Under the pieces are notes generated by a model. It had not been told where the DNA came from, made no database searches, and was given only the letters and a program-made list of their open reading frames with translations. Positions 3 to 36,414 of a stretch of 42,934 nucleotides of DNA are shown here, in pieces. A program made the translations under genes and the position numbers. This DNA is from Thermus hydrothermalis (GTDB lineage: Bacteria; Deinococcota; Deinococci; Deinococcales; Thermaceae): positions 1-42,934 of the forward strand of contig NZ_JAKTNT010000021.1 in NCBI RefSeq assembly GCF_022760925.1, read 5' to 3'. Numbering within the stretch: the stretch's first letter is position 1; each line of letters opens with the position of its first letter.

Positions 3-53
3 CATAGCGGCCACTATTTTTTCAGATCCAGGGGATAGGTAGCAACTTGGGTT
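3..53. repeat. Left arm of 51-bp terminal inverted repeat
   Basis: These 51 bases are the exact reverse complement of the last 51 bases of the window (42884-42934). The match stops at position 54, where the hsdR frame continues. Stops lie in the hsdR frame at 5-7 and 41-43, so the repeat is not part of hsdR. The simplest reading is the outward end of an insertion sequence that cut hsdR here and the gene at the right end there. An assembly graph that breaks at a shared repeat would give the same picture. Confidence 0.85.
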
Positions 54-3113: not shown

Positions 3114-3424
3114 GCATCACAATCGTCCGATGGACATTCGAAGGCCCTTACCCGTTAGGCGAAACCTGGCGGCTGCAAGACCGCTCGGGCGTGTATGTGA
3201 TTTTAGATCTACATCCGGACGGATACTATTGCTTAGATGTGGGCGAATCTGCTCAGGTCAAGACCCGAGTGGAAACGCACGACCGCACGGATTGTTGGCG
3301 GCGCCACCGCGGGGGCGCGCTGTATGTGGCAGTCTTGTATACGCCGAATCTGCAGCAACCCGGGCGCTCCGCGATCGAGCAGGAAATCCGACGCCAATAC
3401 AATCCACCCTGCGGTGAACGATGA
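3110..3424 (+). CDS. Small GIY-YIG-like protein inside the hsd operon
   Basis: A 104-residue protein with the layout of a stand-alone GIY-YIG fold. It has GVYV (27-30) in place of GIY, YCLDVGES (40-47) in place of YIG plus the next strand, a basic stretch KTRVETHDR with a candidate helix arginine, and a late glutamate (about E90) before NPPCG. The fold usually gives a metal-dependent DNA nuclease, but the second motif is unusual, so activity is uncertain. Its start overlaps the hsdM stop by 4 nt, and its stop overlaps the next small ORF by 4 nt, so it is translated with the type I genes. It may be an accessory or replacement nuclease, or a regulator. The family call is from motif reading only. 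Confidence 0.6.
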   Translation: MSITIVRWTFEGPYPLGETWRLQDRSGVYVILDLHPDGYYCLDVGESAQVKTRVETHDRTDCWRRHRGGALYVAVLYTPNLQQPGRSAIEQEIRRQYNPPCGER

Positions 3425-3555
3425 CAGTCTGCAGCGCACCACACGGTACCAAGCTCCTCTGTGAGGGCGGTGAAGCCAGATTGCTCAAGCCGGTAGAAAC
3501 ACAGCAATTCCTCGACAAGGCCAACAACGTTCTCGGATGGGAGAGTCAGCGATGA
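3421..3555 (+). CDS. 44-residue ORF coupled between the GIY-YIG gene and hsdS
   Basis: An ATG at 3421 overlaps the stop of the upstream gene (ATGA), and its TGA at 3553-3555 overlaps the hsdS ATG at 3552 (ATGA again). The frame thus fills the gap exactly with two 4-nt overlaps, which is unlikely by chance. The product has 44 residues, starts MTVCSAPHGT, ends NNVLGWESQR, and contains a mixed-charge centre. No family is recognised. It could be a small partner of the type I complex, or simply keep ribosomes moving from the upstream genes to hsdS. Confidence 0.55.
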   Translation: MTVCSAPHGTKLLCEGGEARLLKPVETQQFLDKANNVLGWESQR

Positions 3556-7209: not shown

Positions 7210-10200
7210 TTAAGGCTTGGGGAGCTGCCGTAAAGCCTGGATGAGCCAGGCGGTAGCCTCCCTTACCTCCTCGAGGGAAACCTCTTCCACTTTACCCTGG
7301 CGTAGGTCGGCCACAAAAGCCCTTTGCTTGCCCAAGGCGAGGGCATACAGGCCCACCTGGAGGCGATAGGCCTCGAGGTCCAGAGCCAGGTCCGTCTTGT
7401 AATCCAAAACCCAATCAGGACCCACCCGGTCGGCCCTACCCTCGAGGGCCACCGTTTCCCCCTCCTCCAGCTCCAAGTAATAGACCACGGGCACTTCCTT
7501 CTCCCCCCTGCGATAGGGGGCGAAGGCCTCGTGGATGAGGAAGGTGTGCGCCAAGGAGAGGGCCTCCTCCCACTCTTCCTCTTCGGCCTCAGGGTAATGG
7601 CTTTCCAAAAACGCCCGCCCACCCTCATTCAGCGCATCTTCCTGGTCAAACTTCTCCAGCAGGGCGTGCACCATGGTGCCCACCAGAGGCCCGCCTGCCC
7701 CTTCTTCATCGTCTGCCTCCAAGAGTGGGGGAAGGTCCCCTTCCGGGGGTCCTCCCCAAAGCCGCCTTCGGGCTGCCTCCAGGTCCTTGGCCGCCAGGGC
7801 GAGGAGGGAGATGGGGAGGGATTCCAAGGGAAGGCGGGAAAGGGGCTCGAGACAAAAATTTCCTTCCGTCCCCGGGGCTTTGGCCTCCGGCTCCTGTTTC
7901 CCCAGGGGAGCTGCCGTTTCCTTGGACTCCTCCAAGGGCCTGGCCCCAGCCCTTTCCAGGGCTTCCTTAAGCTCCGCATTGGCCTCTCCTCCCAAGAGGC
8001 AGTAAAGCCGCTCCGCTGCCCGGGTGGCGGCTACGTAGAGGAGGCGGCGGCGCTCCGCCTCTTCCTCTTGTTCCAAGCACGCCTTGGCCAAATGGAAGAG
8101 GCTTCCGGGGTTGCCATCCCTGTCCAAGACGGGAGGAAAAAGGGCGAGCCCCGGGCGGAAGAAGGCCCGCGTCTTCCAGGGAGCGTTTCCCTTCCAGTTT
8201 CCCACTTCCAAAAGGAACACCACGGGCCACTCCAGCCCCTTGGCGGAGTGGGCGGTGATGAGGGTGACGGCGTTGCCCGCCTCCATGGGGGGACGGGGCA
8301 CCTGCACTCCTTCTCGGCGCAAGAGTCGGAGCTTGCGCACCACCAGGAAAGGGTCCTCGTCCCCCCGCTCCAGTTGGCGCACCAGCGCCAACACGCCTTC
8401 CCAGTCCTTCACCCGCCGGGGTCCCCGGGGCAGGGCCGAGAGTACCCCCGTGTAACCCGTGGCCATGTCCAGCCTCTGGAGAAGGTGGCTCGGGGGCTCC
8501 CAAGACTTGCGCTTGCGGAGGTCCTCCAGGACCACCTTTACCCCTTGGGGGATCACCTCCCAGAGGCTTTTTCCCCTCTTTTCGGCGAGCTGGCGAAGCT
8601 CGGGGTCCGAGAGAGCGAAAAAGGGGGCGCGCAGAAGGCCCACCAGGGCCTCCTCGTCCTCGGGGTCCGCCAGGAAGCGGAGGGCGAGGAAGGCGTCCTC
8701 AAACTCCCGCGTTTCCAAGAGGTTTCCCCCCTTTGCTTCCACGGCTGGGATCCCTGCCTCATGGAGCGCCTCCGCGGCCTTGGCGAGGAGGTTCCATTTG
8801 GGAGCGATCACCGCCACGTCCCCATACCTAAGGCCCCTCTCCCCGTTTCCATCCCGCACGCGAAAGCCTTGGGCGACGAGCCTTTGCACCTCGCGGGCGA
8901 TGAGCCGGAAGGCTTCCTCCCCTGGGGTGGCGTAAAGCACCGCAGGGCCGGGATTCAAGGGGTCCCTTACCGCCTGGACGGGCAGGTAGGTTTCGGCGAG
9001 AAGTTCGCCGAAAAAGGCGTTGTGGAACTGGGCCAGCTCCCGATGGTACCGATAGGACTCCGGGAGGATCCGCACACGCTCGCCCATCTCTTCGAGAAGC
9101 CCCTGGAACACCTTGGGATCGGCCCGACGGAAGCCATAGATGGACTGGTTGGGGTCTCCGGCTACGGTCCAGGCGTCTAGGTTGGGGAAGAGCTTTCGGA
9201 GAAGCTCTTCCTGAACAGGGTTGGTATCCTGAAACTCGTCCACCAAGAGGTGGTGGAAGCGCTCCTGGTAGTAATGCCGTACTGCCTCGTGCTCAAGGGC
9301 GCGCAGGGCGTGGACCTCGAGGTCCGCATACCCCAGGCGGCGGGCCTTGCGGTTCCGCTCCTCCACCTTCGCCCAGACGGTGTCAAAGAGCCTCAAGAGG
9401 AGGGACCAGGCGTTCGGCGGGAGCTTGGCAGGCGTTTCCGAATCCGAAGAAGAGAAGGTGTCCTTCCCCCTTTTAACAAGCGTCTTTAGCTCGTTTAACG
9501 CCTTTTGCAGGGAAGGGGACTGGGGTTGCCCCTTTCCAGTCTGCGGTCGCATGTCTTCTACCAGGGAGGCGAGTTCCCTCCAGGCTGAAGGGCCTTCCTT
9601 CAAGATTTCCCTCACCCTTTCTAGGGCCTCCTGGAGTGATGCCAAGCCGTCTGCGCTTTCTGGGGTTGCCATTTCCTTTTCCAGTTGGATCAGGGCGTAC
9701 TCCACCCTCCTGGCGAAGGAGGACCAGGCTTGGGCAGCGAGCCTCTCTCGCAAGCTCACGGGGTCCTCCTCCAGGAGCTTCCGGGCTGCGAGGGGATCTT
9801 GCAGGGCACGCTCTAGGGTGTCCAGGAGCCCTTCGTAGCCCACCGCTTCCACTAGGGGGGCGTAGCCTTCATCCTCCAGGGCCTCCTGGAGGGTCACCTC
9901 CACCCACGCTGCCCGGAGGAGGGTGGCCTCGAGGTCGTCCAGAACCTGGAAGTCCGCAGGCACTTCCGCTTCTTCCGGGAACTCCCGGCTGATGCGGGCG
10001 GCTAGGCTGTGGATGGTGCCGATGGGAGCGGCTTCCAATTCGGCCACGAGGTGATCCGGATGGGGCAGCTGCCCCAAGCGCTCCCTGAGGCGGTTGCGGA
10101 ACTCCAGGGCGGCCCGATCGGTAAAGGTCACTGCGACGATCTCAATGGGCCTAAGCCCAGTATTCAAGAGCTCCAGGTACCGCTCCACAAGCTGGTGGGT

Positions 10201-10260
10201 TTTGCCCGTGCCCGCTCCCGCCCGGTAGGCCAGCCCTCGCACCTTGGACGCCGTGTTCAT
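7210..10260 (-). CDS. addA: AddA-type UvrD/Rep helicase fused to a RecB-family nuclease
   Basis: This is the motor and nuclease subunit of an AddAB-like double-strand-break resection complex, which also degrades foreign linear DNA. In 1016 residues it has the superfamily 1 Walker A GAGTGKT (15-21), Walker B VDEFQDTNP (near 340), ITAHSAKGLEWPVVFL and LLYVAATRA in the second lobe. The C-terminal PD-(D/E)XK nuclease has MVHALLEKF (near 862) and GRADRV...VLDYKTDL (near 940-957). All key residues seem present. The ATG at 10260 overlaps the addB stop by 4 nt, so the two are translationally coupled. Confidence 0.92.
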   Translation of the reverse strand: MNTASKVRGLAYRAGAGTGKTHQLVERYLELLNTGLRPIEIVAVTFTDRAALEFRNRLRERLGQLPHPDHLVAELEAAPIGTIHSLAARISREFPEEAEVPADFQVLDDLEATLLRAAWVEVTLQEALEDEGYAPLVEAVGYEGLLDTLERALQDPLAARKLLEEDPVSLRERLAAQAWSSFARRVEYALIQLEKEMATPESADGLASLQEALERVREILKEGPSAWRELASLVEDMRPQTGKGQPQSPSLQKALNELKTLVKRGKDTFSSSDSETPAKLPPNAWSLLLRLFDTVWAKVEERNRKARRLGYADLEVHALRALEHEAVRHYYQERFHHLLVDEFQDTNPVQEELLRKLFPNLDAWTVAGDPNQSIYGFRRADPKVFQGLLEEMGERVRILPESYRYHRELAQFHNAFFGELLAETYLPVQAVRDPLNPGPAVLYATPGEEAFRLIAREVQRLVAQGFRVRDGNGERGLRYGDVAVIAPKWNLLAKAAEALHEAGIPAVEAKGGNLLETREFEDAFLALRFLADPEDEEALVGLLRAPFFALSDPELRQLAEKRGKSLWEVIPQGVKVVLEDLRKRKSWEPPSHLLQRLDMATGYTGVLSALPRGPRRVKDWEGVLALVRQLERGDEDPFLVVRKLRLLRREGVQVPRPPMEAGNAVTLITAHSAKGLEWPVVFLLEVGNWKGNAPWKTRAFFRPGLALFPPVLDRDGNPGSLFHLAKACLEQEEEAERRRLLYVAATRAAERLYCLLGGEANAELKEALERAGARPLEESKETAAPLGKQEPEAKAPGTEGNFCLEPLSRLPLESLPISLLALAAKDLEAARRRLWGGPPEGDLPPLLEADDEEGAGGPLVGTMVHALLEKFDQEDALNEGGRAFLESHYPEAEEEEWEEALSLAHTFLIHEAFAPYRRGEKEVPVVYYLELEEGETVALEGRADRVGPDWVLDYKTDLALDLEAYRLQVGLYALALGKQRAFVADLRQGKVEEVSLEEVREATAWLIQALRQLPKP

Positions 10261-12824
10261 GCCCTAACCTCCTTTCGGCAAACCGATTTAGCCCAGCACC
10301 CCCGGCAGACCTGCGTCATCTCCCCGGGGGCAGCGGGGAAGGTGCCCTTCTCCAGGAGGGTTCCCGCCCGTGCGAGTAGGTCGCTTAAGACCTCTTCCCT
10401 GTTTGGGGGATAACCCTTGCCTGTTCTTGGAGAATGGATTAGTTTCCCATCCAGCAGGCCATAGTAAATCCCCTGCCCCCGTCCCTCGTTCACCAACCTG
10501 AGGTAGAGGGGGATCTGCAAGTCCATGCGAAGGCCATTCCCCAGGGGCACTTCCTTCACGCCATGGCTCGTCCGTTTGTAGTCCACCAGAAAGGTGGAGC
10601 CACTCCGGTTGTCCCAGCGGTCAATGCGGCCCGTTATCACAATGTCCTTCAATTCGGGAGTAGACCCCTTTACTTCTCTTTCCACCGCTTGCACCTCAGC
10701 ATCGTCTTTGAGGAAATTGGGCTTCTGCAGGGCCAAGGCTAAGGCCAGTAAGAGGTGGGATCTGCGGTGGGGCCAGTCCCGGCACCGGAGAAAGTGGGCC
10801 TCGCTGCGCCATTGGGTTTCCACTTCCGCAAAGGCCTTCTCGAGCCCGCCTTCTTGTAAGGCCCAGGAGCGGATTTCAGCGCCTCGGGTTTTCCCTGCGG
10901 CCTTGGCTTGCCAAAAGAGCGTTGCCAGGACTGCATGAAGGAACTCACCCTCCTTTCCCAACTCCCCGTCCTCGGCCTCTTCGGCCCCTTGAGGACGGAG
11001 GACGTAGCGCAGGAAGAAGCGGAAGGGGCAGAGGAGGAGTTCCTCCAAGGCGTTGACGGAAAGCTTGGGAGGATGGAAGGGCGCTCCCGCCTGGCCGTTG
11101 TAGGGCGTAGCCTTACTCCCTTGCCGTTCCCTTTCTGCGGCCAAGGCTCGTTTCATTTGCTCCGCGAGCGGGTCCCCTTCCCAGCGGCCCAGGCGCCTCG
11201 CCTCCACACGGCTACCGAGGAGGCGCTCCTTTGGGGGCTCGGGTTCCAGGCCAAGTCGGGCTAGGTAGGGACTGGGAGGCACAGGGTCTTGGCCCACCAC
11301 CTCGGGGTAGGCCAGGACCACCTGGCCCCCCTCCTCCACGCTCCCCAGAAGGGCGGCAAACACCAAGGCCTCTCGGGTAGCCTCCTCCCAGGGCTCCTCC
11401 AAGGAGAGGCCAAGATCGCGAAGGCGTTGGCGTTCGGGGAAGCCCAGAAGGGGGTCTTCCGTGACCGGGGCGGGGGCGAGGCCTTCGGCCATGCCTAGGA
11501 CGAAGAGGTAGCGGTAGCTTCCCCCGTAACGGGCGAGCGGGGTGTTGAGCTCGAGGCCCCGATACCCCGGCTGGGTCGGTACGGTGAGGTGAAAGAGGAG
11601 CTCGGATAGCCCCGAGAAAAATCCCTCCTTTTCCTCTTCCGTTAGCTCGGGAAGCCCCCTGAGGACCGCCTCCAAGGCAGCTCGCTCCCGGGGCCAACTA
11701 CGGAGGCGTCCTCTTAGGGGGCTTAGGAAGCCTCTGAGTGCCTGGACCAACTCCCTCCCCTTCGCCATGCGGGATATTTCGCAAAGGGCTTCGGGAAGCC
11801 CGAGGCCTTTCCACGCCACCTCCCCTTGGGGTCTAAGGGTGCGGGCCTGCCGCAGGTCCAGGCTTCTTTCCAGGGGAAAAAGGGGGTGGAAGAGGAGGCG
11901 GAGGGTGGCCTCGTAAGGGAAGCCGGAAAGGGCTTGGGAGAGGAGGGCGAGGAGGCTTCCTACCCGTGTTTCCCCCACGGGGATGCGGTAGAGGAGGCGG
12001 AGGGGGATTCCCTGCTCCAAGACCACCACTGCCGCTAGGGGGCCGTAGAGGCGGTCGTCCCGGACCACTAGGGCGATCCGCTCTGCTGGGACTCCTTGCG
12101 CCAGGAGGTTCTTGATCCGGGCCAGGATGTAGCGCACCTCCTGCTCCCTATCGGGGAAGCGGAGGGCTTGGACCTGGACCCCTGGAGGAACCTCCCGCTT
12201 CGCCTCTAGGAAAGCTTGGGCCAAGGGGGAAAGGGGGGCCTCCACCACCTCGAGGCCCCCCTTCTCCAACAGCTCCTTCGCCTGTTGGTTGGCCTCGCCC
12301 ATGGGGCCTGAGGGTAGGGGGAGGGTTACCGTGCTCCCCGGGGCCGCTACCCTCTGGAGGAAGAACCGCTCCCCAGCCCCGAGGTAGGGGTAGCCCTCCA
12401 CCCGAAGGAACTGCTTGGCCTTGCCCACCACCTGCCCTGCCCGCACCAGGAGGGAGGCCGGGTCTACAAAGCCCTTTTTCTCCAGGAGCTCCAGGTACGC
12501 CAAGGCCACACGCACCACCCGCTCGGCCCGCTTATCCGGACCGCTTTCCCCTAGCTTCCTCAGGGCTTGCTCTAGGACTTCCCTGTCCCCAGCCCGAAGG
12601 AGGGCCCGCAGGGCGGGAGAGATGGCGGCCGCAAACCCCTCGGGGTCGGAAGGCCCCACGGTTTCCCGCACCGCCTGCACCAGGAGACGACGGGCGCGAA
12701 AGGGCGAGGCCACCTCTACCCCCTGGGCCAAGAGCAGGCTTCGGGCGAGGTCCTCCAGACTGAGGCGGCGGACTTTTAGCCTCCGGGCCACCGCCCGGTT
12801 GGGCGTGATGAGGAGGGGGCGCAT
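10257..12824 (-). CDS. addB: AddB-like nuclease subunit with Fe-S type cysteines
   Basis: Partner of AddA: an inactive-helicase scaffold plus a PD-(D/E)XK nuclease. The 855 residues begin MRPLLITPNRAVARRL, where a Walker A motif would be expected, but none is present. The C-terminal nuclease shows GRIDRWD and FLVDYKRT (near 728-745). Four cysteines fit the Fe-S clasp of AddB nucleases: one in LLLCPFRFFL (near 597) and three in VCRGCWAKSVC near the C-terminus. ATG 12824 is chosen because AGGAGGGG lies just before it; the longer reading to 12986 gives a low-complexity tail overlapping the upstream gene. Confidence 0.87.
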   Translation of the reverse strand: MRPLLITPNRAVARRLKVRRLSLEDLARSLLLAQGVEVASPFRARRLLVQAVRETVGPSDPEGFAAAISPALRALLRAGDREVLEQALRKLGESGPDKRAERVVRVALAYLELLEKKGFVDPASLLVRAGQVVGKAKQFLRVEGYPYLGAGERFFLQRVAAPGSTVTLPLPSGPMGEANQQAKELLEKGGLEVVEAPLSPLAQAFLEAKREVPPGVQVQALRFPDREQEVRYILARIKNLLAQGVPAERIALVVRDDRLYGPLAAVVVLEQGIPLRLLYRIPVGETRVGSLLALLSQALSGFPYEATLRLLFHPLFPLERSLDLRQARTLRPQGEVAWKGLGLPEALCEISRMAKGRELVQALRGFLSPLRGRLRSWPRERAALEAVLRGLPELTEEEKEGFFSGLSELLFHLTVPTQPGYRGLELNTPLARYGGSYRYLFVLGMAEGLAPAPVTEDPLLGFPERQRLRDLGLSLEEPWEEATREALVFAALLGSVEEGGQVVLAYPEVVGQDPVPPSPYLARLGLEPEPPKERLLGSRVEARRLGRWEGDPLAEQMKRALAAERERQGSKATPYNGQAGAPFHPPKLSVNALEELLLCPFRFFLRYVLRPQGAEEAEDGELGKEGEFLHAVLATLFWQAKAAGKTRGAEIRSWALQEGGLEKAFAEVETQWRSEAHFLRCRDWPHRRSHLLLALALALQKPNFLKDDAEVQAVEREVKGSTPELKDIVITGRIDRWDNRSGSTFLVDYKRTSHGVKEVPLGNGLRMDLQIPLYLRLVNEGRGQGIYYGLLDGKLIHSPRTGKGYPPNREEVLSDLLARAGTLLEKGTFPAAPGEMTQVCRGCWAKSVCRKEVRA

Positions 12825-12834
12825 TCCTCCCCTC

Positions 12835-13032
12835 CTAAAGGGGTCTAGACCCCTTAATGCGGCCCCGGGCGTCGTAGTGGTAGACCCGCTGTCCCCGACG
12901 GACCATGACCGTGTCCGCTGTCCAGCCCAGGACCTCGTCCTGGCTTGAGATGCTGATGTGGCCGATGATCCGTCCCCGCTCGTCAAACACGTCCAAGATG
13001 TTTCCCCGCCTGCGCACGGATGCGATTTTCAT
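12835..13032 (-). CDS. Conserved-looking 65-residue protein before addB
   Basis: The small protein has mostly beta-type sequence, with NILDVFDERGRIIGHISIS and QRVYHYDARGR. ATG 13032 has GGGAGAGG 6 nt upstream, and its stop lies 10 nt before the addB start, so it is part of the addBA operon. No family is recognised. The repeated D..GRI.G pattern suggests a small beta-barrel or hairpin pair. Confidence 0.65.
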   Translation of the reverse strand: MKIASVRRRGNILDVFDERGRIIGHISISSQDEVLGWTADTVMVRRGQRVYHYDARGRIKGSRPL

Positions 13033-20769: not shown

Positions 20770-21253
20770 AGCTGGACTGCTAAAAGCGAAAAAGGGGAAT
20801 CCTCGATGCCATTCAGGAGAAAGGGGAGAAGCGCCTAACTCCACCGCTTCCTCACTCATGGGGGCCAAAGAGGCCTTAGAACGCTTCCCCCTAGCGGGAT
20901 GGGCAGGGGTATGGGGCGCCAAGGGGATCCTGGCCAAAGTATCCTGGATGGGCTCCGACGTGTCCGTGTACACCTTCACCTTCCCGGTCAGAAACCCTGT
21001 GGACCCCTTGACCCTACACTTCCCGGAAAACACTCTCGAGGCCCGCCGAGAAAACTCCCTCCGCAGGAACCTGCTCTGGAAGCGGTGGGCTTCTCCGACC
21101 GAACAAGCTGTGAAGCACCTATGAGAAATGAGGGTCCTTCACAAACTGGCCAAGGCCCTCCACTTGCCCGAACTGCCGGAGGCCCTCGAGGCGGGGGACC
21201 AAAGCGTAGTGGAGGAAGCGGTGGCGAGGGTGGTGGTGATGGGACTGGCGTAG
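20770..21253 (+). pseudogene. Decayed copy 1 of the gene at 32847-33668
   Basis: Pieces match the copy at 32847-33668 in order: AKEALERFPLAGW, PENTLEARRENSLRRNLLWK RWAS, and, after a large internal loss at 21120, KLAKALHLPELPEALEAGD to TAG 21251. Several frame changes occur. At the position of the amber codon in the other copy this one has TGG (in VSWMGSD), which shows what the ancestral codon was. Confidence 0.7.
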
Positions 21254-22563: not shown

Positions 22564-22792
22564 TGGTGGAAGTGGGGGGAGTTGAACCCCCGTCCGAAGG
22601 TACCTACGGCGGGCGTCTACACGCGTAGTCCGCGTTTTGGGTGTCCTCCTGGCTTGGCCCACGGACGGGCGGCCAGGAGCAAGCCCCGTTGCGCTTCGCC
22701 GAAAGCTACGGAGCTTGGCCATCAGCTAGCCGATCTTGTGTCCCCGCGCTAGGTCCCACCGGCAGGGCGCCTAGGCAAGGTCGCGGTCATTA
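22564..22792 (-). ncRNA. ssrA: tmRNA, 3' part only
   Basis: Reading the minus strand from 22792, TAATGACCGCGACC is the end of the tag frame plus the next helix. Then come GGGGACACAA, GGCTAGC, the segment TCCTGGCCGCCCGTCCG with GGGCCAAGCCAGGAGGACAC, and ACGCGGACTACGCG. The T-arm/acceptor part is CGGACGGGGGTTCAACTCCC to the encoded CCA at 22564. From memory this closely follows the 3' half of Thermus thermophilus tmRNA. The tRNA-like 5' arm, first pseudoknot and an ANTNYALAA-type tag are absent upstream of 22792; IS sequence lies there instead. The piece cannot work as tmRNA. It may mark an integration site in ssrA or a copy cut by an IS. Confidence 0.88.
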
Positions 22793-22849
22793 CTTTGTGG
22801 CGCGGAGGGTGAGGCTAGCGCCCGGCCGTGGGGATGGGGAGCTGAGCTC

Positions 22850-23185
22850 TCATCCCTTTCCCCACCCCTGTACCCGTTGCCGGGAAAGACCCCCAAGCAC
22901 CCCCACCGCCACGCCCTGCAGGGAAGGAGGACCCTCCGCCAGAAGGTGGCGGGCCAAGCGGAAAAGGCTCTGCCCCTCAGGATGCGCCACCACCCCCTGC
23001 CCCGCAAAGTGGCCCCCAAAAGGACCAAAACAGCCATCCCCAGGAACAAAAGCCAAAGCCATCCCCTAAGGCTCCCCTCCCTCCTCAGCCCGTGCCGGTC
23101 CAACCCAAACCCCCGCCCCTTCAGGTCCCGAAAAGCCTCCTCTATCCCCATCCGCAGGCGGTGTATGCCCGTGCGTTCGGGGGGG
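22850..23185 (-). pseudogene. C-terminal fragment of an IS4-like transposase
   Basis: The minus strand reads IHRLRMGIEEAFRDLKGRGF, then GSLRGWLWLLFLGMAVLVLL. After a frame change it reads SLFRLARHLLAEGPPSLQGV and ends VQGWGKG at a stop at 22850. The glutamate of the DDE triad would be in IEEAFRDLK. The N-terminal two thirds are missing. At 23185 it abuts a propeller-gene fragment on the other strand, and at about 22793 it abuts the tmRNA piece. Confidence 0.6.
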
Positions 23186-24003: not shown

Positions 24004-24840
24004 TCAGGCCAGGTAGCGCTCCTGCGGCACCGCCACCGCCATCTCGGCCATCTCTTCCCAGAGAGAGGCGAAGGGCTCCCGGGCGAAGCGCCCCACGTCC
24101 ACCCGCTCCACCTGGCTCCTGTACCGCTCCCGCATCTCGGGCTTGGCCATGGCTTCCCGGTAGAGGGCGAGGCGGGCAGGGCCTTCGGGCACCACCAGGC
24201 CCCAGCGGGGAAGTTCCGCCACCAGCCCCTCCGCCATGGCCAGGCCGGCGGGGTCCAGGTCAAAGGCGAGGAGGACCTCCCCCGCATAGCCCCTTAGGGC
24301 CTCCCCCCAAGGCAGGGGGCGGGTCCGGGCGCCGTCGCCCCGGTAGAGGAGGATGTAGTCCGCCGGGTGTTCCCGCCGCTCCCTTTCCCCCAAAACCTCG
24401 AGGCCCTCCCCCCGGTAACGGAGGAAGGCCTCGAGGTTCTCCACCAACACCAGGGGAAGCCCCTCCGCCCGGGAAAGGAGGACCTCTAAGGGGAAGACGG
24501 CGTAGGCCCCTTCGGGAAAGTCCGGGGCGAGGCCCAAAGCCCTCCGCCCCTCGCCCACCCCCCGCACCGCCACCTCCACCCCGGAGGGCCGGGCGGAGCG
24601 CTTGTCGTTGCCCAAGCGCTCGTACGCCTCCCTTTTGGAAGGGGGCGGGCTCTCGCTCGCATAAGCCTCCAAAAGGGGAAGCGCTTGGGCGGTGAGCTCC
24701 CACCACCCCTCCCGGTAGCGGGCACCCCCTTCCCCCACCAGGCGGGGGAGGAGGTGGGCCAAGGCCTTGGCCTCCTCCCCGCTAAGGACGCACCGCCCTT
24801 TCTCCCGCAACCTCTTCTGGATAGCCCGCAACCTCCTCAC
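24004..24840 (-). CDS. jetD: Wadjet JetD, Toprim-type nuclease subunit
   Basis: This is the DNA-cutting subunit of the Wadjet anti-plasmid system, with a topoisomerase VI-like Toprim fold. The Toprim glutamate lies in LVLVENLEAF (near residue 127), and the DxD pair in AFDLDPAG (near 190-192). With the GTG at 24840 the protein has 278 residues, shorter than the roughly 380-400 I know for JetD, so part of the N-terminal (DUF3322-like) arm is missing or short. That GTG has GGGAGG 6 nt before it and overlaps jetA by 59 nt; a longer open frame exists up to 25185, but its text is low-complexity shadow sequence. It is the last gene of the operon. Confidence 0.85.
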   Translation of the reverse strand: MRRLRAIQKRLREKGRCVLSGEEAKALAHLLPRLVGEGGARYREGWWELTAQALPLLEAYASESPPPSKREAYERLGNDKRSARPSGVEVAVRGVGEGRRALGLAPDFPEGAYAVFPLEVLLSRAEGLPLVLVENLEAFLRYRGEGLEVLGERERREHPADYILLYRGDGARTRPLPWGEALRGYAGEVLLAFDLDPAGLAMAEGLVAELPRWGLVVPEGPARLALYREAMAKPEMRERYRSQVERVDVGRFAREPFASLWEEMAEMAVAVPQERYLA

Positions 24841-26071
24841 GGAAGACCTCCCGGATCCAAAGGGTCCAGCCGTCGCTCCAGAGGTCAAAGCGAAGCCCGG
24901 GGAGCTCCTCCCGCCTCTCGTACAGGTGGAGGGCGAGGAGCGTGTGCGTGGTTTCCCCCAGGCCCCGCTCGGAGGCGAACCCGGACAGGGTGGCGTGGGG
25001 AGAGGCCAAGAACGCCTCTTCCAGCTCTCGGAGGGTTTCGGAGGCCTCTTCCCCTTCGGCGAAGACCTCCTCCGGTTCCAGGACCTCGAGGGGAGCTGGC
25101 TCCTCCGGTACCTCCCCCCACTCCCCCCGCAAGGCCCCCCATTCCTCGTCCGCCGGGAGGAGGAGGTGGGGGCGCTCAGGGGCAAAGAGGAGGGGGAGTT
25201 CCCCTTCCAGGCCTTCCTGGGCCAGGCGTTCCAGGCGCTCCCAGATCTCCCGCCGCGCCTGCATCCGGCGCACGAGCCCCTCGCCCAGGCGCTGGAAGAA
25301 CCGGATCGCCTCGTCTATGCTCCTCGCCGCCCTCGCCTTCACGCTCGTTCTGAGCCTGAAGAGCGCCCTTTCCGCCCGCTCCATCTCCGCCCGCACCGCC
25401 CCCTCCGCCTCCAGGGGAAGCCCCTCGAGGAGAAGGGGCAAACGCGCTTGCAACCGAGCGCTCTTGGCCGCCAGGCTGTCCTCTTCCCCGTCCAGGCGCT
25501 CTAGCGCCCTCAGGATAAGCCCCGCCTTCTCCTGCACCTCCCCCAGCCTGGCCCAGGCTTCCGCCAGGGTGATCTTCCCGTCGGCCAGCTTGGTTTCCAC
25601 GTCAAGGCGCACGAGCTGGCGCAGGCTCTCGGGGGTTCGGACCAGAAACTCGGCCAGCTCCTCCAGGGTTTGGTGGTGGCGTTGCAAGTAGGCCAGGGCG
25701 TTGTTGAGGAGGCCCTTGGTCAAGGCGTCCTCGAACCAGGAGAGGCTCTCCTCGGCCCGGGCGAAGGCCTCCAGGGCTTCCTGGGCCCGCTCCCCCGCCT
25801 GAACAAAGGTCTGGAGGATGCCCCCCGAAACCGCGTGGAAAAAGTTCGCCAGGGCGCTCGTGGGCCGGAACTCCCCCTCGTCCCCGCCCATGAGGAAACC
25901 GTAGGCCTCGAGCTCCTTGAGGAGGTCCTCCCCGGGAGGGGGAGGCGGCGCTTCCCGCTTCCCCTCCCGGTGGAGGAGGAGGCCAAAGAGAAACTCCTGC
26001 ACCTCGGGCTTGGCCAGGAGGCGGATGGCCCTCTCAAAACGCCTGCGCGCGAGGCGGATGGCTTCCCCTAT
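24782..26071 (-). CDS. jetA: Wadjet JetA, kleisin-like (MukF-type) subunit
   Basis: This subunit links the heads of the SMC protein JetC. With the proposed start it has 429 residues: an N-terminal helical/winged part (EAIRLARRRFERAIRLLAKP), long helices in the middle (LVRLDVETKLADGKITLAEA, VRAEMERAERALFRLRTSVK) and a C-terminal domain ending YPEEVAGERAVRP. There is no ATG, GTG, TTG or CTG in frame between 26206 and the clearly coding part. The ATA at 26071, sharing bases with the jetB TAG (ATAG) and 7 nt after GAGGAGG, is the best start. A GTG at 26002 is the first ordinary alternative and would remove 23 residues. Confidence 0.85.
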   Translation of the reverse strand: MGEAIRLARRRFERAIRLLAKPEVQEFLFGLLLHREGKREAPPPPPGEDLLKELEAYGFLMGGDEGEFRPTSALANFFHAVSGGILQTFVQAGERAQEALEAFARAEESLSWFEDALTKGLLNNALAYLQRHHQTLEELAEFLVRTPESLRQLVRLDVETKLADGKITLAEAWARLGEVQEKAGLILRALERLDGEEDSLAAKSARLQARLPLLLEGLPLEAEGAVRAEMERAERALFRLRTSVKARAARSIDEAIRFFQRLGEGLVRRMQARREIWERLERLAQEGLEGELPLLFAPERPHLLLPADEEWGALRGEWGEVPEEPAPLEVLEPEEVFAEGEEASETLRELEEAFLASPHATLSGFASERGLGETTHTLLALHLYERREELPGLRFDLWSDGWTLWIREVFREEVAGYPEEVAGERAVRP

Positions 26072-26667
26072 GGTCCCACCTCCTCTCTCCCCGCCCGCCC
26101 CGCAAGCTCCTCGTAGACCAAGGCCAGGCTGGAGAAGGCGTAAGCCTCCCCCTCCACCCGGTAAAGGAGGCCTCCCTTCACGAGCCCCTCCAGAAGCCCG
26201 TCCCACGCCTGGAGAAGATCCTCGTCCCCTTCGCCCTTAAGGTACCCCTCCGCCCGCAGGAAGGTTTCGTACCGGGAGCGGTCCCCGCTGAGGAGGAGGA
26301 GGTGGCGCACCCCATCGGAGCGGGGGTGGAAGCGGAAGCCAGGCGCCACCTCCAGGCCCGCCCCCAGGAGGAGGTGCTTGAGAAAGAGGTACTCCTTGAG
26401 GCGCCCTTCCGCCCGCTCCCGGAGGCGCCCCCGCTGGTCCCCTCCCATAAACCGCCAGTAGGCGGGCGTGGGAACGAGAAAGAAGACCATGGGCTCCTCA
26501 GGAGGAAGGGCCCGGAGGAGGAGGCCCTCCGCCTCCAGGTGCGCCTCCACCTCCGCCCGATGCCGCTTCAGGAGGGCGAAGTCTCCCCTTTCCTCCCGGT
26601 CCCCGTCTTGGCGCACGAACCCATTGCGCCTTAGCCGGAAAAGAGCTTCCGCCCACTCCGCGCTCAC
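26068..26667 (-). CDS. jetB: Wadjet JetB, MukE-like subunit
   Basis: A 199-residue winged-helix protein of the MukE/DUF4194 kind that binds the kleisin JetA. It shows EALFRLRRNGFVRQDGDREE, VFFLVPTPAYWRFM, EYLFLKHLLLGAGLEV and a C-terminal wing GLLEGLVKGGLLYRVEGEAY. GTG 26667 overlaps the jetC stop (GTGA), and its own stop overlaps the proposed jetA start. Its size fits the family. Confidence 0.85.
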   Translation of the reverse strand: MSAEWAEALFRLRRNGFVRQDGDREERGDFALLKRHRAEVEAHLEAEGLLLRALPPEEPMVFFLVPTPAYWRFMGGDQRGRLRERAEGRLKEYLFLKHLLLGAGLEVAPGFRFHPRSDGVRHLLLLSGDRSRYETFLRAEGYLKGEGDEDLLQAWDGLLEGLVKGGLLYRVEGEAYAFSSLALVYEELAGRAGREEVGP

Positions 26668-29600
26668 CCTTCCCTCCTTCCCACCACGCCCTCCATGGGG
26701 CCATCCCCTTGGGGCTTCACCGCCATGCCCCGCACCTCCACCACCTTAAAGACCGCCCGCCTGGCCACCTCCACCAGGGTTTCCTTGCTGGGCGTCGCCC
26801 CCAGGAGGACGAGCCCCAGGGCTTCTACCCCTTGGAAGAGGGCGGCGGCGTTCTCCCCGTCCAGGCGCCCTAGCTCGTCCACCAAAAGGGGAAGGCGCAC
26901 CCCGGAGCCCCCATCCAGGAGGCTCACCAAGGAGGCCGCCAGGGCGTGGGCCATGGCCGCCCCCTGGCCCGTGGACACCTTCCCCCTGAGCTCGCCGAGG
27001 GTGGAGAGGGCTACCCGCCTCCCTCCCCGCTCCAGGACAAAGCGCAGGCGGAAGCTATCGGCGAGGAGCTTCTCCAGGGGGATCTCGGCGTACCGCCTGC
27101 CCACCCGCTCCAGGGAATGGAGGCTCGCCTCGAGGTCGCCTGCGGGGAAGAGGGGTTGAAGGTTCGGACGCTGAAAGTGCTCCACCACGGCTATCACATC
27201 CTCCCTAAGGCGCCCGAGCGCCTCTTCCAGCTCCCTTTCCTCCCGCTCCACGTTCCCCTCCAGGCGCACCTCCGCCCAGCGGACGGTGGGGAAGGCGAAG
27301 GTCTTAAGCCGATCCTCCACCATCCGCACCAGTTGGGCCAAGCGGAGCCTAGCGCTCCTCGCCTGGGTGAGCTTGGCCTCCAGGGCGTGGACCTGGGCGC
27401 TTAGGCTGCGGGAGAGGGCCAGCCCCCTGTGCTCGTAGTGCGTCTCGAAGTCTTCGGGGAGGAGGTCCTTCCCCCGATCCAGGCGCCGGAAGGGGACCCC
27501 TAGATGCTGGCGCATCCGAATGACCCGCTCTTCCAGCTTCTCCACCTCATCCGAGAGGCGCCGCAAGCGCTCGGGTTCTGGGGGGTCTGGGGGGAGCTCG
27601 GGGAACGGGGCCTCCCACTCGGGGGCCGAGCTGGGAAACTGGTCGCTGAGCCGCTTCCGCAAGTCATCCACAGCGGGGGTATCGTTGAGGGCCCTTTTGA
27701 GCGCCTCCCAACGGGCCCGCTTCGCCGAAGCCTCTTGGCGCACCCTATCCCTTTCCTCCCTCAGGGCTTTCTCCTCCCTTTCGTACGCCGCTTTCAGCGC
27801 CTTTTCCCTCTCCTTCAGGGTATGGATCTCCCCCTCCACCTGGGCGAGCTCCGCCTCTAGGGCGGGGAGCCTCCGGGCTTCCTCTTCCGCCCGGCGCAAC
27901 GCCTGCCAGGCTTCAAGGGCCTTCCCCAGGGTTTGCGCCTCCCGCTCTAGGGCTCGGCGGCGCTCCTCCAGGGGAAGGAGTTCGGTTGGGGGAGGCTCGT
28001 CCTCCACGGGGAGGCGGAGCTTCCGCTCCTCTTCCGCAAGCACCTTCAGGGCCTCGGCGAAGGGCTTGCGGGCCTCCTCCTGGGCTTTTTCCAAGCGCCC
28101 TTTCCACTCCCTTTCCATCGCCTTCCGGCGCGACGCCAAGGAGGCTAGCCCTTCCTCCACCTGGGCGAGGCCTTTCCTGAGGCGGGCGAGGGCTTCTTTC
28201 CGCTCGGCGAGGAAGCGCTCCCGGCGCTCCTTCAGCCACCCCTCGAGGCGCAGGAGGCTTTCCCGAAGCTCCTCCTCCCGCCTTTCCCGGGCTCGGACAT
28301 CCTCCTCTAGCGCCCGTACCCAGTCCTCGGACCGGCGGACCTCCTCTTCCTTGCCCTTTAGGGCCTCCTCCGCCTGGTGGAGCTTCACCTCCAGGTCCGC
28401 CAAGGGGTCGGGGGGGACAGGGAGGTGCGATACCCGCAAGGCCACCTCGCCCACCCCCACCCGGTCCGGGGGGAGGGAAGGCGGGGAGAAGAGAACGGGC
28501 TCGAGGTCGTTCCGCTCCAATAGGGAAGGGGAGAGGACCCTTCCCACCCCTTGGCGCCAGGAGGGCACGTTCTTGTCCAGGAAGCCGAGGAGCGAGCCTT
28601 CCTGGCGTAAGCGCCCCAAGGCCTCCCGGAGCTTGAGGACCTCCTCCCGCTTTTCCTCAAGGCCCCGCCTCTCCCGCTCCAACTCCCGTTTCGCCCCCTC
28701 CAGCTCGTTCCGCTTTTTGAGGAGCGCCTCCCGGAAACTCCCGAGCGCTTCCTTGAGGCGGGCGATCTCCTCTTTGGCCCGGCGCCACTCGTCGTCTTGG
28801 GGCTCGTTCTGGGCCTCGAGGCGGGCCAGGCTTTCCCGAAGCTTCAGCCTCTCTTCCTCAAGCTCCTTTCGCTCCGCCTCGAGGCGCGCTTCCTCCTCCT
28901 TCCAGGCCGTTTCCAGGCGGGTCCGGGCCTCCTCCACCGCCCGCTCCATCTCTTCCCGGAGCGCTTCCTTCCGCCGGCCGACCTCCTGAAGCCGTTCGGC
29001 CCTTTCCCTCTCCCGCTCCGCCCGCCTCCTTTGCCTCTCCGCCTCCCACGCCGCCCCCTTTTGGGCTATCTCCCCCTCCAGAAGGCGAAGCTCCCGCCGC
29101 ACCTCTTCTAGGCGCAAGGGCAGATGGGCGCCGTCCAGGTGGGACCAGGGGGCCATGGCCGCTTGGGCCCGGCGAAGGGCTTCCTGGAGGGCGCGGATCT
29201 GCCCGGAAAGCTCCCCCTTCCTCATGGACAGCTCCTCCAGTTCCCCTTGGAGGGCCTCGAGGTCCTTTTCCCGCCTCTCTAGGAGCTCTTGCAACCTATC
29301 TTCGCACTCCTTCGCCTCCGCCTCTAGTCCCCTCACCTCCTCCTCGAGGCGGGGCAGGGCTTCCTCCGCCAAGAGGCGGGTAGCGCCATAGAGCTTGAAC
29401 TTCGCCACCAGGTCCCCACGGGCCCTCCTATATTCCTCCACCTCGGGCATGGTCTTGGCCATCTCGCCCAGTTCCTCCAGCTCCTCCCGGATCTCCCGCA
29501 GGCGCTCCTGGAAGTTGGCCGTGGGGTAGGCCTCCCCCTCCGAAGGGGGCAGGGCCAGGTCCACGAGAAACTGGCGGACCCACTCTTCCTTCAGGGCTTC

Positions 29601-30206
29601 CCCAAGGGATAGCCCGAGAAACCACCCGAGGGAAACCTTCCCCCCGGAGGGGAAGGCGTGGCCCCGCAGGGGGGAGCGGGAGCGCTCGGCGAAAAGCCGA
29701 GCGTAAGCCTCCGGGCTGCGGACCTCCACCACGCTTTCCCCCACCAACCCCATGGCCGCCAGGCGCTCGTGCAGCTCGTTGGGCGTGAGGAAGCGGCGCC
29801 CCTCCCTCAGGATGTCGGGCTCCACGTGCCCGGGGAGGACCAGGTAGCGGTATTGGTTGCCGTGGGCGTAGGCGATGACGGTGGTGGGCCCTTCCCGTCC
29901 CAAGAAGTGCCCCCCCAGGTACCCGCTTAAACGCCTGTGGGCCCCATCCCCGGAAGGGGGCGCCAGGTAGAGCTCCCGGAAGCTCCCCCCGCCTCCCACC
30001 AGGCGGTCGGGGTCGGGATGCCCGAAGAGAAAGGCCACGAGGCGCAGGAGGCTCGTCTTGCCCACGCCGTTGCTTCCCACCAAAACGGTGGGGCTTTCCA
30101 GGGACAAGGACGAGAGGACGGCGCTCCCGGGCCTGTCGGGGTGGGGGAGGACCCAGAAGAGTTTTCGCAAGCCGTAAAAGGCTTTAGATTCCGTCATCCA
30201 TTTCAC
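26664..30206 (-). CDS. jetC: Wadjet JetC, SMC/MukB-like ATPase
   Basis: This is the DNA-loop-extruding motor of the anti-plasmid system. The 1180-residue protein has Walker A GSNGVGKT near residue 44-51, a very long Glu/Arg/Leu coiled coil (about 220-950) with a central non-coiled hinge part (near 540-600, LGFLDKNVPSWRQGVGRVLS), a signature-type STGQGAAMAHALAAS near 1075 and Walker B LPLLVDELGRLD near 1105. GTG 30206 is preferred because GGGGAG lies 6 nt upstream; an ATG three codons later (30197) is possible, and the frame is open to 30275. It is the first gene of the operon, unlike the A-B-C-D order of described Wadjet loci. Confidence 0.9.
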   Translation of the reverse strand: MKWMTESKAFYGLRKLFWVLPHPDRPGSAVLSSLSLESPTVLVGSNGVGKTSLLRLVAFLFGHPDPDRLVGGGGSFRELYLAPPSGDGAHRRLSGYLGGHFLGREGPTTVIAYAHGNQYRYLVLPGHVEPDILREGRRFLTPNELHERLAAMGLVGESVVEVRSPEAYARLFAERSRSPLRGHAFPSGGKVSLGWFLGLSLGEALKEEWVRQFLVDLALPPSEGEAYPTANFQERLREIREELEELGEMAKTMPEVEEYRRARGDLVAKFKLYGATRLLAEEALPRLEEEVRGLEAEAKECEDRLQELLERREKDLEALQGELEELSMRKGELSGQIRALQEALRRAQAAMAPWSHLDGAHLPLRLEEVRRELRLLEGEIAQKGAAWEAERQRRRAERERERAERLQEVGRRKEALREEMERAVEEARTRLETAWKEEEARLEAERKELEEERLKLRESLARLEAQNEPQDDEWRRAKEEIARLKEALGSFREALLKKRNELEGAKRELERERRGLEEKREEVLKLREALGRLRQEGSLLGFLDKNVPSWRQGVGRVLSPSLLERNDLEPVLFSPPSLPPDRVGVGEVALRVSHLPVPPDPLADLEVKLHQAEEALKGKEEEVRRSEDWVRALEEDVRARERREEELRESLLRLEGWLKERRERFLAERKEALARLRKGLAQVEEGLASLASRRKAMEREWKGRLEKAQEEARKPFAEALKVLAEEERKLRLPVEDEPPPTELLPLEERRRALEREAQTLGKALEAWQALRRAEEEARRLPALEAELAQVEGEIHTLKEREKALKAAYEREEKALREERDRVRQEASAKRARWEALKRALNDTPAVDDLRKRLSDQFPSSAPEWEAPFPELPPDPPEPERLRRLSDEVEKLEERVIRMRQHLGVPFRRLDRGKDLLPEDFETHYEHRGLALSRSLSAQVHALEAKLTQARSARLRLAQLVRMVEDRLKTFAFPTVRWAEVRLEGNVEREERELEEALGRLREDVIAVVEHFQRPNLQPLFPAGDLEASLHSLERVGRRYAEIPLEKLLADSFRLRFVLERGGRRVALSTLGELRGKVSTGQGAAMAHALAASLVSLLDGGSGVRLPLLVDELGRLDGENAAALFQGVEALGLVLLGATPSKETLVEVARRAVFKVVEVRGMAVKPQGDGPMEGVVGRREG

Positions 30207-32846: not shown

Positions 32847-33668
32847 ATGCTGAACTGGCAAGAGCGGAAAAGGGAAATCCTCAATGCCATCCAGAGGGAA
32901 GGGAAGAAGAACCTCCTCCCCGATGAGCTCCTCCACTTCCTCCTCGAGGGGGCCAAGAGGGCCCTGGAGCGCTTTCCCCTGGCGGGGTGGGTGGAGGTGC
33001 ATGGGCGAGTGAGCGCGCATGACGCCAATGGGACCCTCGCCAGGGCCTCCTAGATAGGCCCCTACGTATCCGTGGGCGTCCCGGCTGTGCTGGTCGGGGG
33101 TACCCTAGACCCCAGCGCCCTCCGCTTCCGCCTCCCGGAAAACACCCACGAGGCCCGCCGAGAAAACCCCCTCCGCAGGGACCTCTTTTGGGAGCGGTGG
33201 GCTTCTCGGAGCAAGCGGGGGACGCGCCACCTTTTTGGCCTGAGCGGGGAGATCTGGTCGGGCCTCCTGAGGTCCGCGATTTTCGCCAACGGCCTCGTCT
33301 TCCGGTGGGAGCCCGGGGAAAAGCTCTGGCGGGGCTACCGCTACCACGAGTTGCCGCCCTACTCCCTCCAGGGCAATCCCGTGCCCTTCTACCTGGCCAT
33401 CCCCGAGTGGACCTTCACCAAAGGCTTCCCGCCGAAGGTCCTGGCGCCGGGCGACCCGGTGGCGGTGCAGGCGGCCGCGGTTTCTCCCCAAGAGAAACGC
33501 CTGCTCACCGCGCTCCACGATAGGGTGCCTTGGCCTAGAGAGATGAAGATCCTTCACAAACTGGCCAAAGCCCTCCGCTTGCCCGAACTGCCGGAGGCCC
33601 TCGAGGCGGGGGACCCAGACGCCTTGGAGGAGGCCAGGGCCAGGGCTTTGGTCCTCCACCTGGGGTGA
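32847..33668 (+). pseudogene. Unknown 273-residue protein broken by one amber codon (fullest of three copies)
   Basis: ATG 32847 begins MLNWQERKREILNAIQREGK, then ALERFPLAGWVEVHGRV and TLARAS, followed by TAG at 33051-33053. The same frame goes on without another stop as IGPYVSVGVPAVLVGG, RFRLPENTHEARRENPLRRD LFWERWAS, FYLAIPEWTFTKGFPPKVLA and KLAKALRLPELPEALEAGDP to TGA 33666. The decayed copy at 20770-21253 has TGG where this one has TAG. A start at GTG 33072 could give a 198-residue piece. The protein looks cytoplasmic; no family is recognised. A third copy, only the tail, is at 36521-36608. Confidence 0.65.
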
Positions 33669-34662: not shown

Positions 34663-36414
34663 ATGGGACCAATGTGGCGCTCGGTTGCACATAGGTTGGT
34701 GGTCTTTTTGGCTGGAAGTTTAGCCCTTACGGTACAAGCCCAGGGCGGTGGAGGCGTGGGGGATACCCCCCTGCCGGGTGCGGGACAGGTATGGCGGACG
34801 GTATCCACCCGGCTTCACGCCGTCGCCTACGGCGGGGGCCGTTTCGTGGCGGTCGGGTGGGGTGGTACCGCCCTCATCTCCACAGATGGCGTGAACTGGG
34901 TATCCACGCCCTTGGGAACGGCGGCTCTTCTCATGGGCGTTACCTACGGCAACGGTCATTTCGTGGCGGTGGGGTTAGGCGGTACAATCCTTACTTCCAG
35001 GGACGGAACGAACTGGTCTCCCGCGAGGTTGGGGCTGATAAGGGCAAAGGGCTTCAACGGCGTTGCCTACGGTAGAAATGGGTTTGTGGCGGTGGGGTTT
35101 GACGGTGCCATCTTCTTCTCCCCGAACGGGATGGACTGGTTCTCCGTGCGTTCGCAGACGACCAACAGCCTCAACTCCGTTACCTACGGCGACGGTCGTT
35201 TCGTAGCGGTGGGGGAAAATGGCACTATCCTCGTTTCCCCAAACGGAACAAGCTGGCTTCCCGTGAAATCGGGGACAACGAGCCATCTCAACGCTATTGC
35301 CTACGGTGACGGCCGTTTTGTGGCGGTAGGACCCAGGGACACCATCCTCACCTCCACAAACGGGACGGACTGGACCCCCGCACGTTTGGAAACGCCAAGC
35401 TACTTCACTAACGTCACCTACGGCGGGGGTTGGTTCGTCGCGGTAGGGATTCTCGGCACCATCTTTGTTTCCCCGGATGGGGTGAACTGGACCCGTGTGC
35501 GGTTTGGGATGGGGAATTCCCTTTTTGGCCTCACCTATGGCGGGGGCCGCTTCGTGGCGGTAGGAGCAGGTACCAGCATCCTCGTTTCTCCGGACGGAGC
35601 GAGCTGGGTTTCCGTTGGGGTGGCAACAACAGACTTCCTCGAAAGCGTCGCCTACGGCGAAGGTCGCTTCGTGGCGGTTGGGTTTGGTGGTGCCAGCATC
35701 CTGGTTTCCCCGGACGGAGAAAACTGGGCCTCTGTGGGTACATGGGCAAACGGCCTTCGGGGTGTCACCTACGGCGGGGGCCGCTTCGTGGCGGTAGGAA
35801 AGGACGGCGCCATCCTCGTTTCCTCAGATGGAACAAACTGGATTTCTGTGAGTTCGGGGACGGCGCACCACCTCAACGCTGTTGCCTACGGCGGTAGTCG
35901 CTTCGTAGCGGTCGGGGAAGGTGGCACCATCCTCATCTCCCCGGACGGGATGAACTGGGCTCCCGCCCGTTCAGAAACAGAAAAGGACCTCAATGGGGTT
36001 GCCTACGGCGAAAACCGCTTCGTAGCGGTAGGAAATGATGGTGTCATCCTCGTTTCCCCTGACGGAACCGGCTGGCTCCCTGCGAGCTCGGGAACGGCAA
36101 ACCGCCTCAACGCCGTAACCTATGGCGGTAGTCGCTTCGTGGCGGTCGGGGATAAGGGCACCGTCCTCACTTCCACAAATGGGGTGAGCTGGACCCACGC
36201 ACGTTCAGAAACGACGAGGAACCTCAATGGTGTCACCTACACCGGGGAGCACTTCGTGGCAGTAGGCCAAATCGGTACCATCCTCGTTTCCCCAGGCGGA
36301 GCGAGTTGGTTTCCTGTGAATTCAGGAGTGCTAAGCCCCCTCAAAGCCGCCGCCTACGGTGGAGGCCGGTTCGTGGTGGTGGGGGAAGATGGCACCATCC
36401 TCGTTTCTCCCTAG
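34663..36414 (+). CDS. Secreted protein with 14 propeller-type repeats
   Basis: A 583-residue exported protein. The signal peptide is MGPMWRSVAHRLVVFLAGSL ALTVQA. After it come 14 repeats of about 39 residues of the form LNxVxYGxGRFVAVGxxGTI LxSxDGxxW. The last one ends after ILVSP and lacks the final W strand, while the N-terminus before repeat 1 has QVWRTVS, which could supply it (a velcro closure). Fourteen repeats suggest two seven-bladed propellers; this is inference. ATG 34663 follows GAGGTG at 5 nt. Two other places in the window carry related sequence (13035-13589 and 23188-23266). Confidence 0.85.
   Translation: MGPMWRSVAHRLVVFLAGSLALTVQAQGGGGVGDTPLPGAGQVWRTVSTRLHAVAYGGGRFVAVGWGGTALISTDGVNWVSTPLGTAALLMGVTYGNGHFVAVGLGGTILTSRDGTNWSPARLGLIRAKGFNGVAYGRNGFVAVGFDGAIFFSPNGMDWFSVRSQTTNSLNSVTYGDGRFVAVGENGTILVSPNGTSWLPVKSGTTSHLNAIAYGDGRFVAVGPRDTILTSTNGTDWTPARLETPSYFTNVTYGGGWFVAVGILGTIFVSPDGVNWTRVRFGMGNSLFGLTYGGGRFVAVGAGTSILVSPDGASWVSVGVATTDFLESVAYGEGRFVAVGFGGASILVSPDGENWASVGTWANGLRGVTYGGGRFVAVGKDGAILVSSDGTNWISVSSGTAHHLNAVAYGGSRFVAVGEGGTILISPDGMNWAPARSETEKDLNGVAYGENRFVAVGNDGVILVSPDGTGWLPASSGTANRLNAVTYGGSRFVAVGDKGTVLTSTNGVSWTHARSETTRNLNGVTYTGEHFVAVGQIGTILVSPGGASWFPVNSGVLSPLKAAAYGGGRFVVVGEDGTILVSP

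What the first reader, a model, noticed from the sequence alone, without database searches (positions are those of the whole stretch)
24004..30206. Wadjet operon in C-B-A-D order with all genes overlapping and a short JetD
The sequence shows an SMC-type ATPase, a MukE-like, a MukF-like and a Toprim protein in one minus-strand operon. Described Wadjet loci are named for the order A-B-C-D; here the SMC gene comes first. JetD has the Toprim E and DxD residues but only about 278 residues. This may be a separate thermophile subtype.
Basis: partly seen in the sequence, partly recalled or inferred. Interest (0 to 1): 0.7.

Follow-up and report, generated by a model that had tools for sequence, protein, structure and literature searches.

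The report
Compact, rearranged plasmid-defence operon in Thermus
Three Thermus genomes carry a four-gene operon that appears to encode a small, strongly diverged relative of Wadjet, a bacterial machine that reels in small circular plasmids and cuts them; its genes are in an unusual order and the defence-system profiles searched here do not recognise it.

Summary
On the minus strand at 30197-24004 lies an operon jetC-jetB-jetA-jetD in which every neighbouring pair overlaps (4, 4 and 59 nt); JetD is 278 aa. The same order and a 278-280 aa JetD recur in two other Thermus genomes (3 of 27 genus members searched, 3 of 111 Deinococcota), at 60-75% protein identity and under purifying selection. JetB: the AlphaFold model (pLDDT 85) finds Wadjet JetB/MukE as its top 19 of 350,542 PDB chains. 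JetD: a modest model (pLDDT 65) still finds MksG and JetD first. JetC has Walker A/B motifs and a MukB-like C-terminal head. JetA as kleisin rests mainly on context. No profile places A, B or D in Wadjet types I-III; JetC matches type II/III profiles only weakly, mostly in coiled coil. No type III sequence could be fetched, so a diverged type III is not excluded. JetD's shortness is entirely N-terminal (about 110-155 residues missing before the Toprim), and JetB lacks the tail that contacts JetD in type I. Best reading: a compact, diverged Wadjet-type plasmid nuclease. 'Thermophile subtype' is unproven; JetD belongs to Pfam DUF7281, whose spread was not measured.

The parts
26664..30197 (-). 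jetC: SMC-type ATPase, 1177 aa; Walker A GSNGVGKT (residue 41), VSTGQ (about 1074), Walker B LLVDELGRLD (1104), short hinge about residues 533-600 between two coiled-coil arms
   Evidence: Pfam DUF3584 119 bits; hhalign to type II JetC prob 97; C-terminal head similar to MukB, 0 of 300 shuffles
26068..26667 (-). jetB: KITE (tandem winged-helix) subunit, 199 aa, no N-terminal tail
   Evidence: AlphaFold pLDDT 85; Foldseek top 19 all JetB/MukE; VIA Z 11.0 to E. coli JetB; relative L005 matches Pfam MksE E=6e-4
24782..26071 (-). jetA: presumed kleisin (MukF-like), 429 aa, ATA start overlapping the jetB stop
   Evidence: Position between jetB and jetD, conserved in three genomes; no profile or PDB sequence hit; weak pairwise similarity of the L005 copy to type II JetA. 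Assignment is inference
24004..24840 (-). jetD: Toprim nuclease, 278 aa; predicted small winged helix about 20-62, Toprim about 86-232, E134, D194, D196
   Evidence: Pfam DUF7281 37.9 bits, cut-off 27; AlphaFold to Foldseek hits 8b7f MksG E=6e-4 and 7til JetD; VIA top rows JetD, MksG, Topo VI-A; motifs

Best explanation
The operon encodes a compact, highly diverged Wadjet-type (SMC-JET) plasmid-restriction complex. JetC dimers, with JetA (presumed kleisin) and JetB (KITE), would form an ATP-driven loop-extruding motor. When the motor has reeled in a whole small circular DNA and stalls, a JetD dimer cuts the bent DNA with its Toprim active site (E134, D194, D196). Shown here: gene set, order and conservation; a KITE fold for JetB; a Toprim/Topo VI-A-like fold for JetD at moderate model quality; SMC ATPase motifs in JetC; and absence of the hallmark families of types I and II. 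Inferred: complex assembly, extrusion, plasmid cutting and the kleisin role of JetA. The N-terminal region of JetD is cut to about one winged helix, and JetB lacks the N-terminal tail that contacts JetD in type I. How the nuclease is held off and switched on must therefore differ at least in part from type I.
For: Conserved four-gene operon in three Thermus genomes. JetB fold: Foldseek top 19 hits all JetB/MukE, E 6.6e-5 for E. coli JetB; VIA Z 11.0, 172 residues, 4.8 A; L005 JetB to Pfam MksE E=6.3e-4, aligned 9-181. JetD fold: top three of 350,542 chains are MksG and JetD; VIA rows 1-4 are JetD, MksG and Topo VI-A. A type II JetD matches JetD_C at 275-412 and, weakly (E=0.09), DUF7281 over the same residues, 277-413, which links DUF7281 to the JetD C-terminal domain. 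JetC: Walker A/B; C-terminal head vs MukB z 6.6-8.4, 0 of 300 shuffles; hhalign to type II JetC prob 97, E 1.9e-10. The mechanism of known Wadjet is from PMC10586767 and PMC13040014. A type I restriction-modification system lies in the same window.
Against: No sequence-level homology of window JetA, JetB or JetD to any type I or II protein. The JetD model is only pLDDT 65 and its C-terminal 36 residues, with the QE274 candidate metal ligand, are under 50. JetA is not shown to be a kleisin. DUF3584 is a known magnet for coiled coils (PMC3695513), so that hit alone means little. No activity data.
Confidence: 0.82

Rival explanations
1. It is a very diverged member of Wadjet type III rather than a lineage of its own; the gene order and short JetD are variation inside type III. 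(This rival concerns classification and is compatible with the mechanism proposed above.)
For: JetC of L005 and L004 match PADLOC JetC3 (E 1.9e-10 and 3.4e-9). PADLOC labels JetC3 simply 'DUF3584 domain', and window JetC matches DUF3584 at 119 bits. PMC12647877 notes that some type III JetC have short arms and that type III hinges lack a channel.
Against: The JetC3 matches lie in coiled coil and off register (222-526 vs 789-1086). Window JetC has no JetC3 match at E<=0.01. JetA, JetB and JetD of all three genomes match no type III profile. JetA3 is 536 positions against 429 aa here and is absent from 111 Deinococcota.
Confidence: 0.35
2. A MukBEF/MksBEF-like chromosome-organising condensin that has kept or gained a Toprim protein and serves chromosome maintenance or repair rather than plasmid defence.
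For: JetB fold and the JetC C-terminal head are MukE- and MukB-like. SMC complexes of this class do both jobs; P. aeruginosa MksBEF acts on chromosomes (PMC10586767).
Against: Patchy: 3 of 27 Thermus genomes, absent from the same-species genome G033. The nuclease gene overlaps jetA by 59 nt in all three. Housekeeping condensins lack such a subunit.
Confidence: 0.08
3. A Lamassu/OLD-like phage-defence SMC system with a Toprim effector, not a Wadjet.
For: Best PADLOC hit of window JetC is LmuB, E 4.4e-9.
Against: That hit is in coiled coil (473-834). There is a KITE subunit, no LmuA/LmuC-type partner was matched, and JetD resembles JetD/MksG before any OLD protein.
Confidence: 0.04

Closest known systems
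Wadjet type I (JetABCD / MksFEBG / EptABCD)
   Same: SMC + KITE + Toprim nuclease in one operon; JetB fold closest to type I JetB and MukE; JetD fold closest to MksG and JetD; JetB about KITE size
   Different: Order C-B-A-D instead of A-B-C-D; no JetA1/JetD1 profile hit and JetB1 only at E=0.014 in one relative; JetD about 120 residues shorter at the N-terminus; JetB without the N-terminal tail
Wadjet type II (TIGR02677/02678/02680/02679)
   Same: Same four roles; JetC related by profile-profile
   Different: None of the TIGR families match the window proteins, while they do match Meiothermus-family locus L021; JetB 199 vs 368-405 aa, JetC 1177 vs 1312-1391 aa, JetD 278 vs 377-426 aa
Wadjet type III (PADLOC JetA3-JetC3)
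   Same: JetC3 is described as DUF3584, as is this JetC; weak coiled-coil matches
MukBEF / MksBEF
   Same: MukE fold of JetB, MukB-like C-terminal head of JetC
   Different: Has a fourth, nuclease gene; patchy distribution
Pfam DUF7281 (PF23947)
   Same: JetD of all three genomes scores above the curated cut-off
   Different: The family has no described function and no paper in the held library mentions it

Membership tests
Wadjet (JetABCD) in general | SMC-family ATPase subunit with N- and C-terminal ATPase motifs and coiled coils (JetC) | tested here: met
   Walker A, Walker B, hinge and long arms conserved in three genomes; head similarity to type II JetC and MukB
Wadjet (JetABCD) in general | KITE / MukE-like subunit (JetB) | tested here: met
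   MksE profile in relative L005
Wadjet (JetABCD) in general | Kleisin subunit (JetA) | tested here: inconclusive
Wadjet (JetABCD) in general | Toprim nuclease of Topo VI-A type (JetD) | tested here: met
   Fold match to MksG and JetD as top hits, E and DxD motifs; model quality modest
Wadjet (JetABCD) in general | ATP-dependent restriction of small circular DNA | not testable with these tools
   Needs an experiment
Wadjet type I | PADLOC JetA1-D1 profiles; JetD_C and N-terminal JetD domains | tested here: not met
   No match for window A, B or D; JetB1 only E=0.014 in L005
Wadjet type I | Gene order A-B-C-D | tested here: not met
   Order is C-B-A-D in three genomes; type I order mksFEBG from PMC10123090
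Wadjet type II | TIGR02677, TIGR02678, TIGR02680, TIGR02679 / PADLOC JetA2-D2 | tested here: not met
   None for A, B, D; JetC2 only E=0.003, while comparator locus L021 matches all four
Wadjet type III | PADLOC type III profiles | tested here: inconclusive
   A, B, D no match; JetC3 matches only in coiled coil off register; no type III sequence could be fetched for direct comparison
MukBEF | Three-gene condensin without nuclease | tested here: not met
   Conserved, overlapping jetD in all three loci
Lamassu | LmuB with LmuA effector and LmuC, no KITE/kleisin | tested here: not met
   No LmuA/LmuC match; KITE subunit present

The most novel reading that the evidence does not exclude
A fourth, previously unrecognised Wadjet lineage: a minimal SMC-JET machine with order C-B-A-D whose nuclease (DUF7281) has lost the N-terminal arm and whose KITE subunit has lost the nuclease-tethering tail, so that nuclease gating works differently from types I-III.
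Probability: 0.5. Interest if true: 0.6.

Novelty: new variant of a known kind. Interest (0 to 1): 0.42.

Why it matters
The PADLOC profiles used here recognise at most one of the four subunits, so Wadjet-type systems of this lineage would be missed in surveys. A compact, presumably heat-stable SMC-JET complex with a nuclease reduced to a winged helix plus a Toprim would be a handy system for asking which parts of JetD and JetB are needed to couple finished loop extrusion to DNA cutting. It may also bear on the transformability of Thermus strains used as laboratory hosts.

Tried and rejected
JetC and JetD pattern scans of viral contigs and the single genome-contig scan gave only Thermus sp. 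2.9. tblastn of JetD and JetC in plasmids and of JetD in phages found nothing. PDB sequence searches with JetD, JetA and JetB profiles gave no relevant hit, and JetC only a tektin coiled coil. hhalign of JetA, JetB and JetD against type II and MukEF found nothing, and pairwise alignment of the JetD Toprim region to type I/II JetD is at chance, so the JetD assignment rests on fold, motifs and context. The LmuB, JetC2/JetC3 and DUF3584 hits of JetC were discounted as mostly coiled coil (PMC3695513, lists DUF3584 among families that overlap many others). JetA matches to Cas12c in L005 were discounted as helical-composition noise. Searching other phyla was not possible: 'of' needs a G handle and the E. 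coli record is not held. Doron 2018 and Deep 2022 are not held, so the type III gene order could not be checked. The whole genome was not available as a file.

Full report
Observation. The four minus-strand genes are present as described: jetC 30197-26664, jetB 26667-26068, jetA 26071-24782, jetD 24840-24004. Neighbours overlap by 4, 4 and 59 nt. The jetB/jetA overlap requires an ATA start for jetA (ATAG, sharing bases with the jetB TAG); the homologous codon is GTG in both relatives. The window lies in a Thermus genome (G000, 2.36 Mb); the genus is taken from the related record 'Thermus sp. 2.9' found at 60% identity and the kinship table.

Conservation. JetD, JetA, JetB and JetC profiles each find strong matches in three of 111 Deinococcota genomes, all in the same genus: the window's own, G043 and G046 (the same contig coordinates as Thermus sp. 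2.9). JetB also gave one weak match elsewhere, E=0.0025 (not followed up). The same-species genome G033 lacks the operon. In all three the order is C-B-A-D, JetD is 278-280 aa and the jetA/jetD overlap is 59 nt. dN/dS is 0.27-0.50. In Thermus sp. 2.9 a 1.7-kb insert with a 519-aa ORF splits jetB from jetA.

What the proteins are. JetB: the AlphaFold model has pLDDT 85. Its first 19 Foldseek hits are all JetB or MukE and the top VIA rows are Wadjet JetB, Z 11.0 and 10.8. The G043 JetB also matches Pfam MksE at E=6e-4, below the curated cut-off but over the whole domain. JetD: pLDDT 65. The three best Foldseek hits are C. glutamicum MksG and P. aeruginosa JetD; VIA ranks JetD, MksG, then Topo VI-A. 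Z 7.4 alone would be middling, but the ranking by function is consistent and the model range is the Toprim (84-232). JetC: Walker A and Walker B are conserved. The C-terminal head resembles MukB (0 of 300 shuffles reach the score) more than type II JetC, and the N-terminal head resembles type II. JetA: kleisin by position and by elimination only.

What 'short JetD' means. From, the Toprim glutamate is at residue 134 here, against 272 in a type I JetD (L031) and 246 and 289 in type II JetDs (L021, L036). From the first Asp of DxD to the C-terminus there are 84 residues here, against 87, 84 and 89. So the Toprim half has normal size and the loss, about 110-155 residues, is all N-terminal. What remains there is predicted as a small winged helix. 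Spacing between E and DxD is 60 here against 43-48. JetB residue 1 aligns to residue 44 of E. coli JetB and 48 of PA14 JetB, so the N-terminal tail that carries the IFDR motif contacting JetD in type I (PMC10586767) is missing. That both the JetD arm and the JetB tail are missing suggests, by inference, a different coupling of nuclease and motor.

Where it belongs. PADLOC profiles of types I-III do not match window JetA, JetB or JetD; JetC reaches E=0.003 for JetC2. The relatives add JetB1 at E=0.014 and coiled-coil, off-register matches of JetC to JetC3. NCBIfam TIGR02677-02680 are absent but present in a comparator from the same family, L021, so the test works in this phylum. JetD is Pfam DUF7281. 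A type II JetD from an Alicyclobacillus plasmid matches JetD_C and, weakly, DUF7281 over the same residues, which links the two families. Gene order is A-B-C-D in type I (PMC10123090) and in the type II loci L020 and L036, and split in L021. Type III order and sequences could not be obtained, so a diverged type III stays the main rival.

How it most likely works. By analogy with characterised Wadjet (PMC10586767; PMC13040014), JetABC extrudes DNA loops, a small circle is fully extruded, the stalled motor bends the DNA, and the JetD Toprim dimer cuts it. The parts for this are present here; the action itself is inferred. The window also carries a type I restriction-modification system (hsdR end, hsdM, hsdS at 47-5219), which fits a defence neighbourhood.

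Verdict. A real, conserved, compact and strongly diverged Wadjet-type operon: a new variant of a known kind. The 'thermophile subtype' label is not established.

Noticed in passing
window 22564-22904 (-): A second, degenerate tmRNA copy (Rfam 63 bits, 3' half good, odd tag DGQAP) sits 1.1 kb from the operon; the intact ssrA is elsewhere (G000:C15:29674-30020, 168.7 bits). G043 also has a degenerate second copy. It may be an attachment-site remnant of an ssrA-targeting island.
   Followed up: partly
window 26071-26068: jetA appears to start with ATA in the sequence ATAG, sharing bases with the jetB stop; two relatives use GTG at this place. Rare start codon or sequencing error.
   Followed up: partly
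L004:5065-6792 (Thermus sp. 2.9): A 1.7-kb insert between jetB and jetA with a 519-aa ORF that looks transposon-related (TnpB-like by eye) but matches no Pfam or PHROG family.
   Followed up: partly
window 21021-21237 and 33133-33652: Direct repeats, 83-88% identical, flank the operon region 12.1-12.4 kb apart: a broken partial copy of the gene at 33072-33668.
   Followed up: no
window 34663-36414: 583-aa ORF built on a 117-bp repeat, matching beta-propeller families DUF6242 and HVO_0234-like.
   Followed up: no
window 7210-12986: Two adjacent genes, a UvrD helicase with PD-(D/E)XK domain and a second PD-(D/E)XK protein, resembling AddA/AddB.
   Followed up: no
L021 (G021:C76, same family as the window): A type II Wadjet with jetA-jetB transcribed away from jetC-jetD; its families match TIGR02677-02680.
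   Followed up: partly
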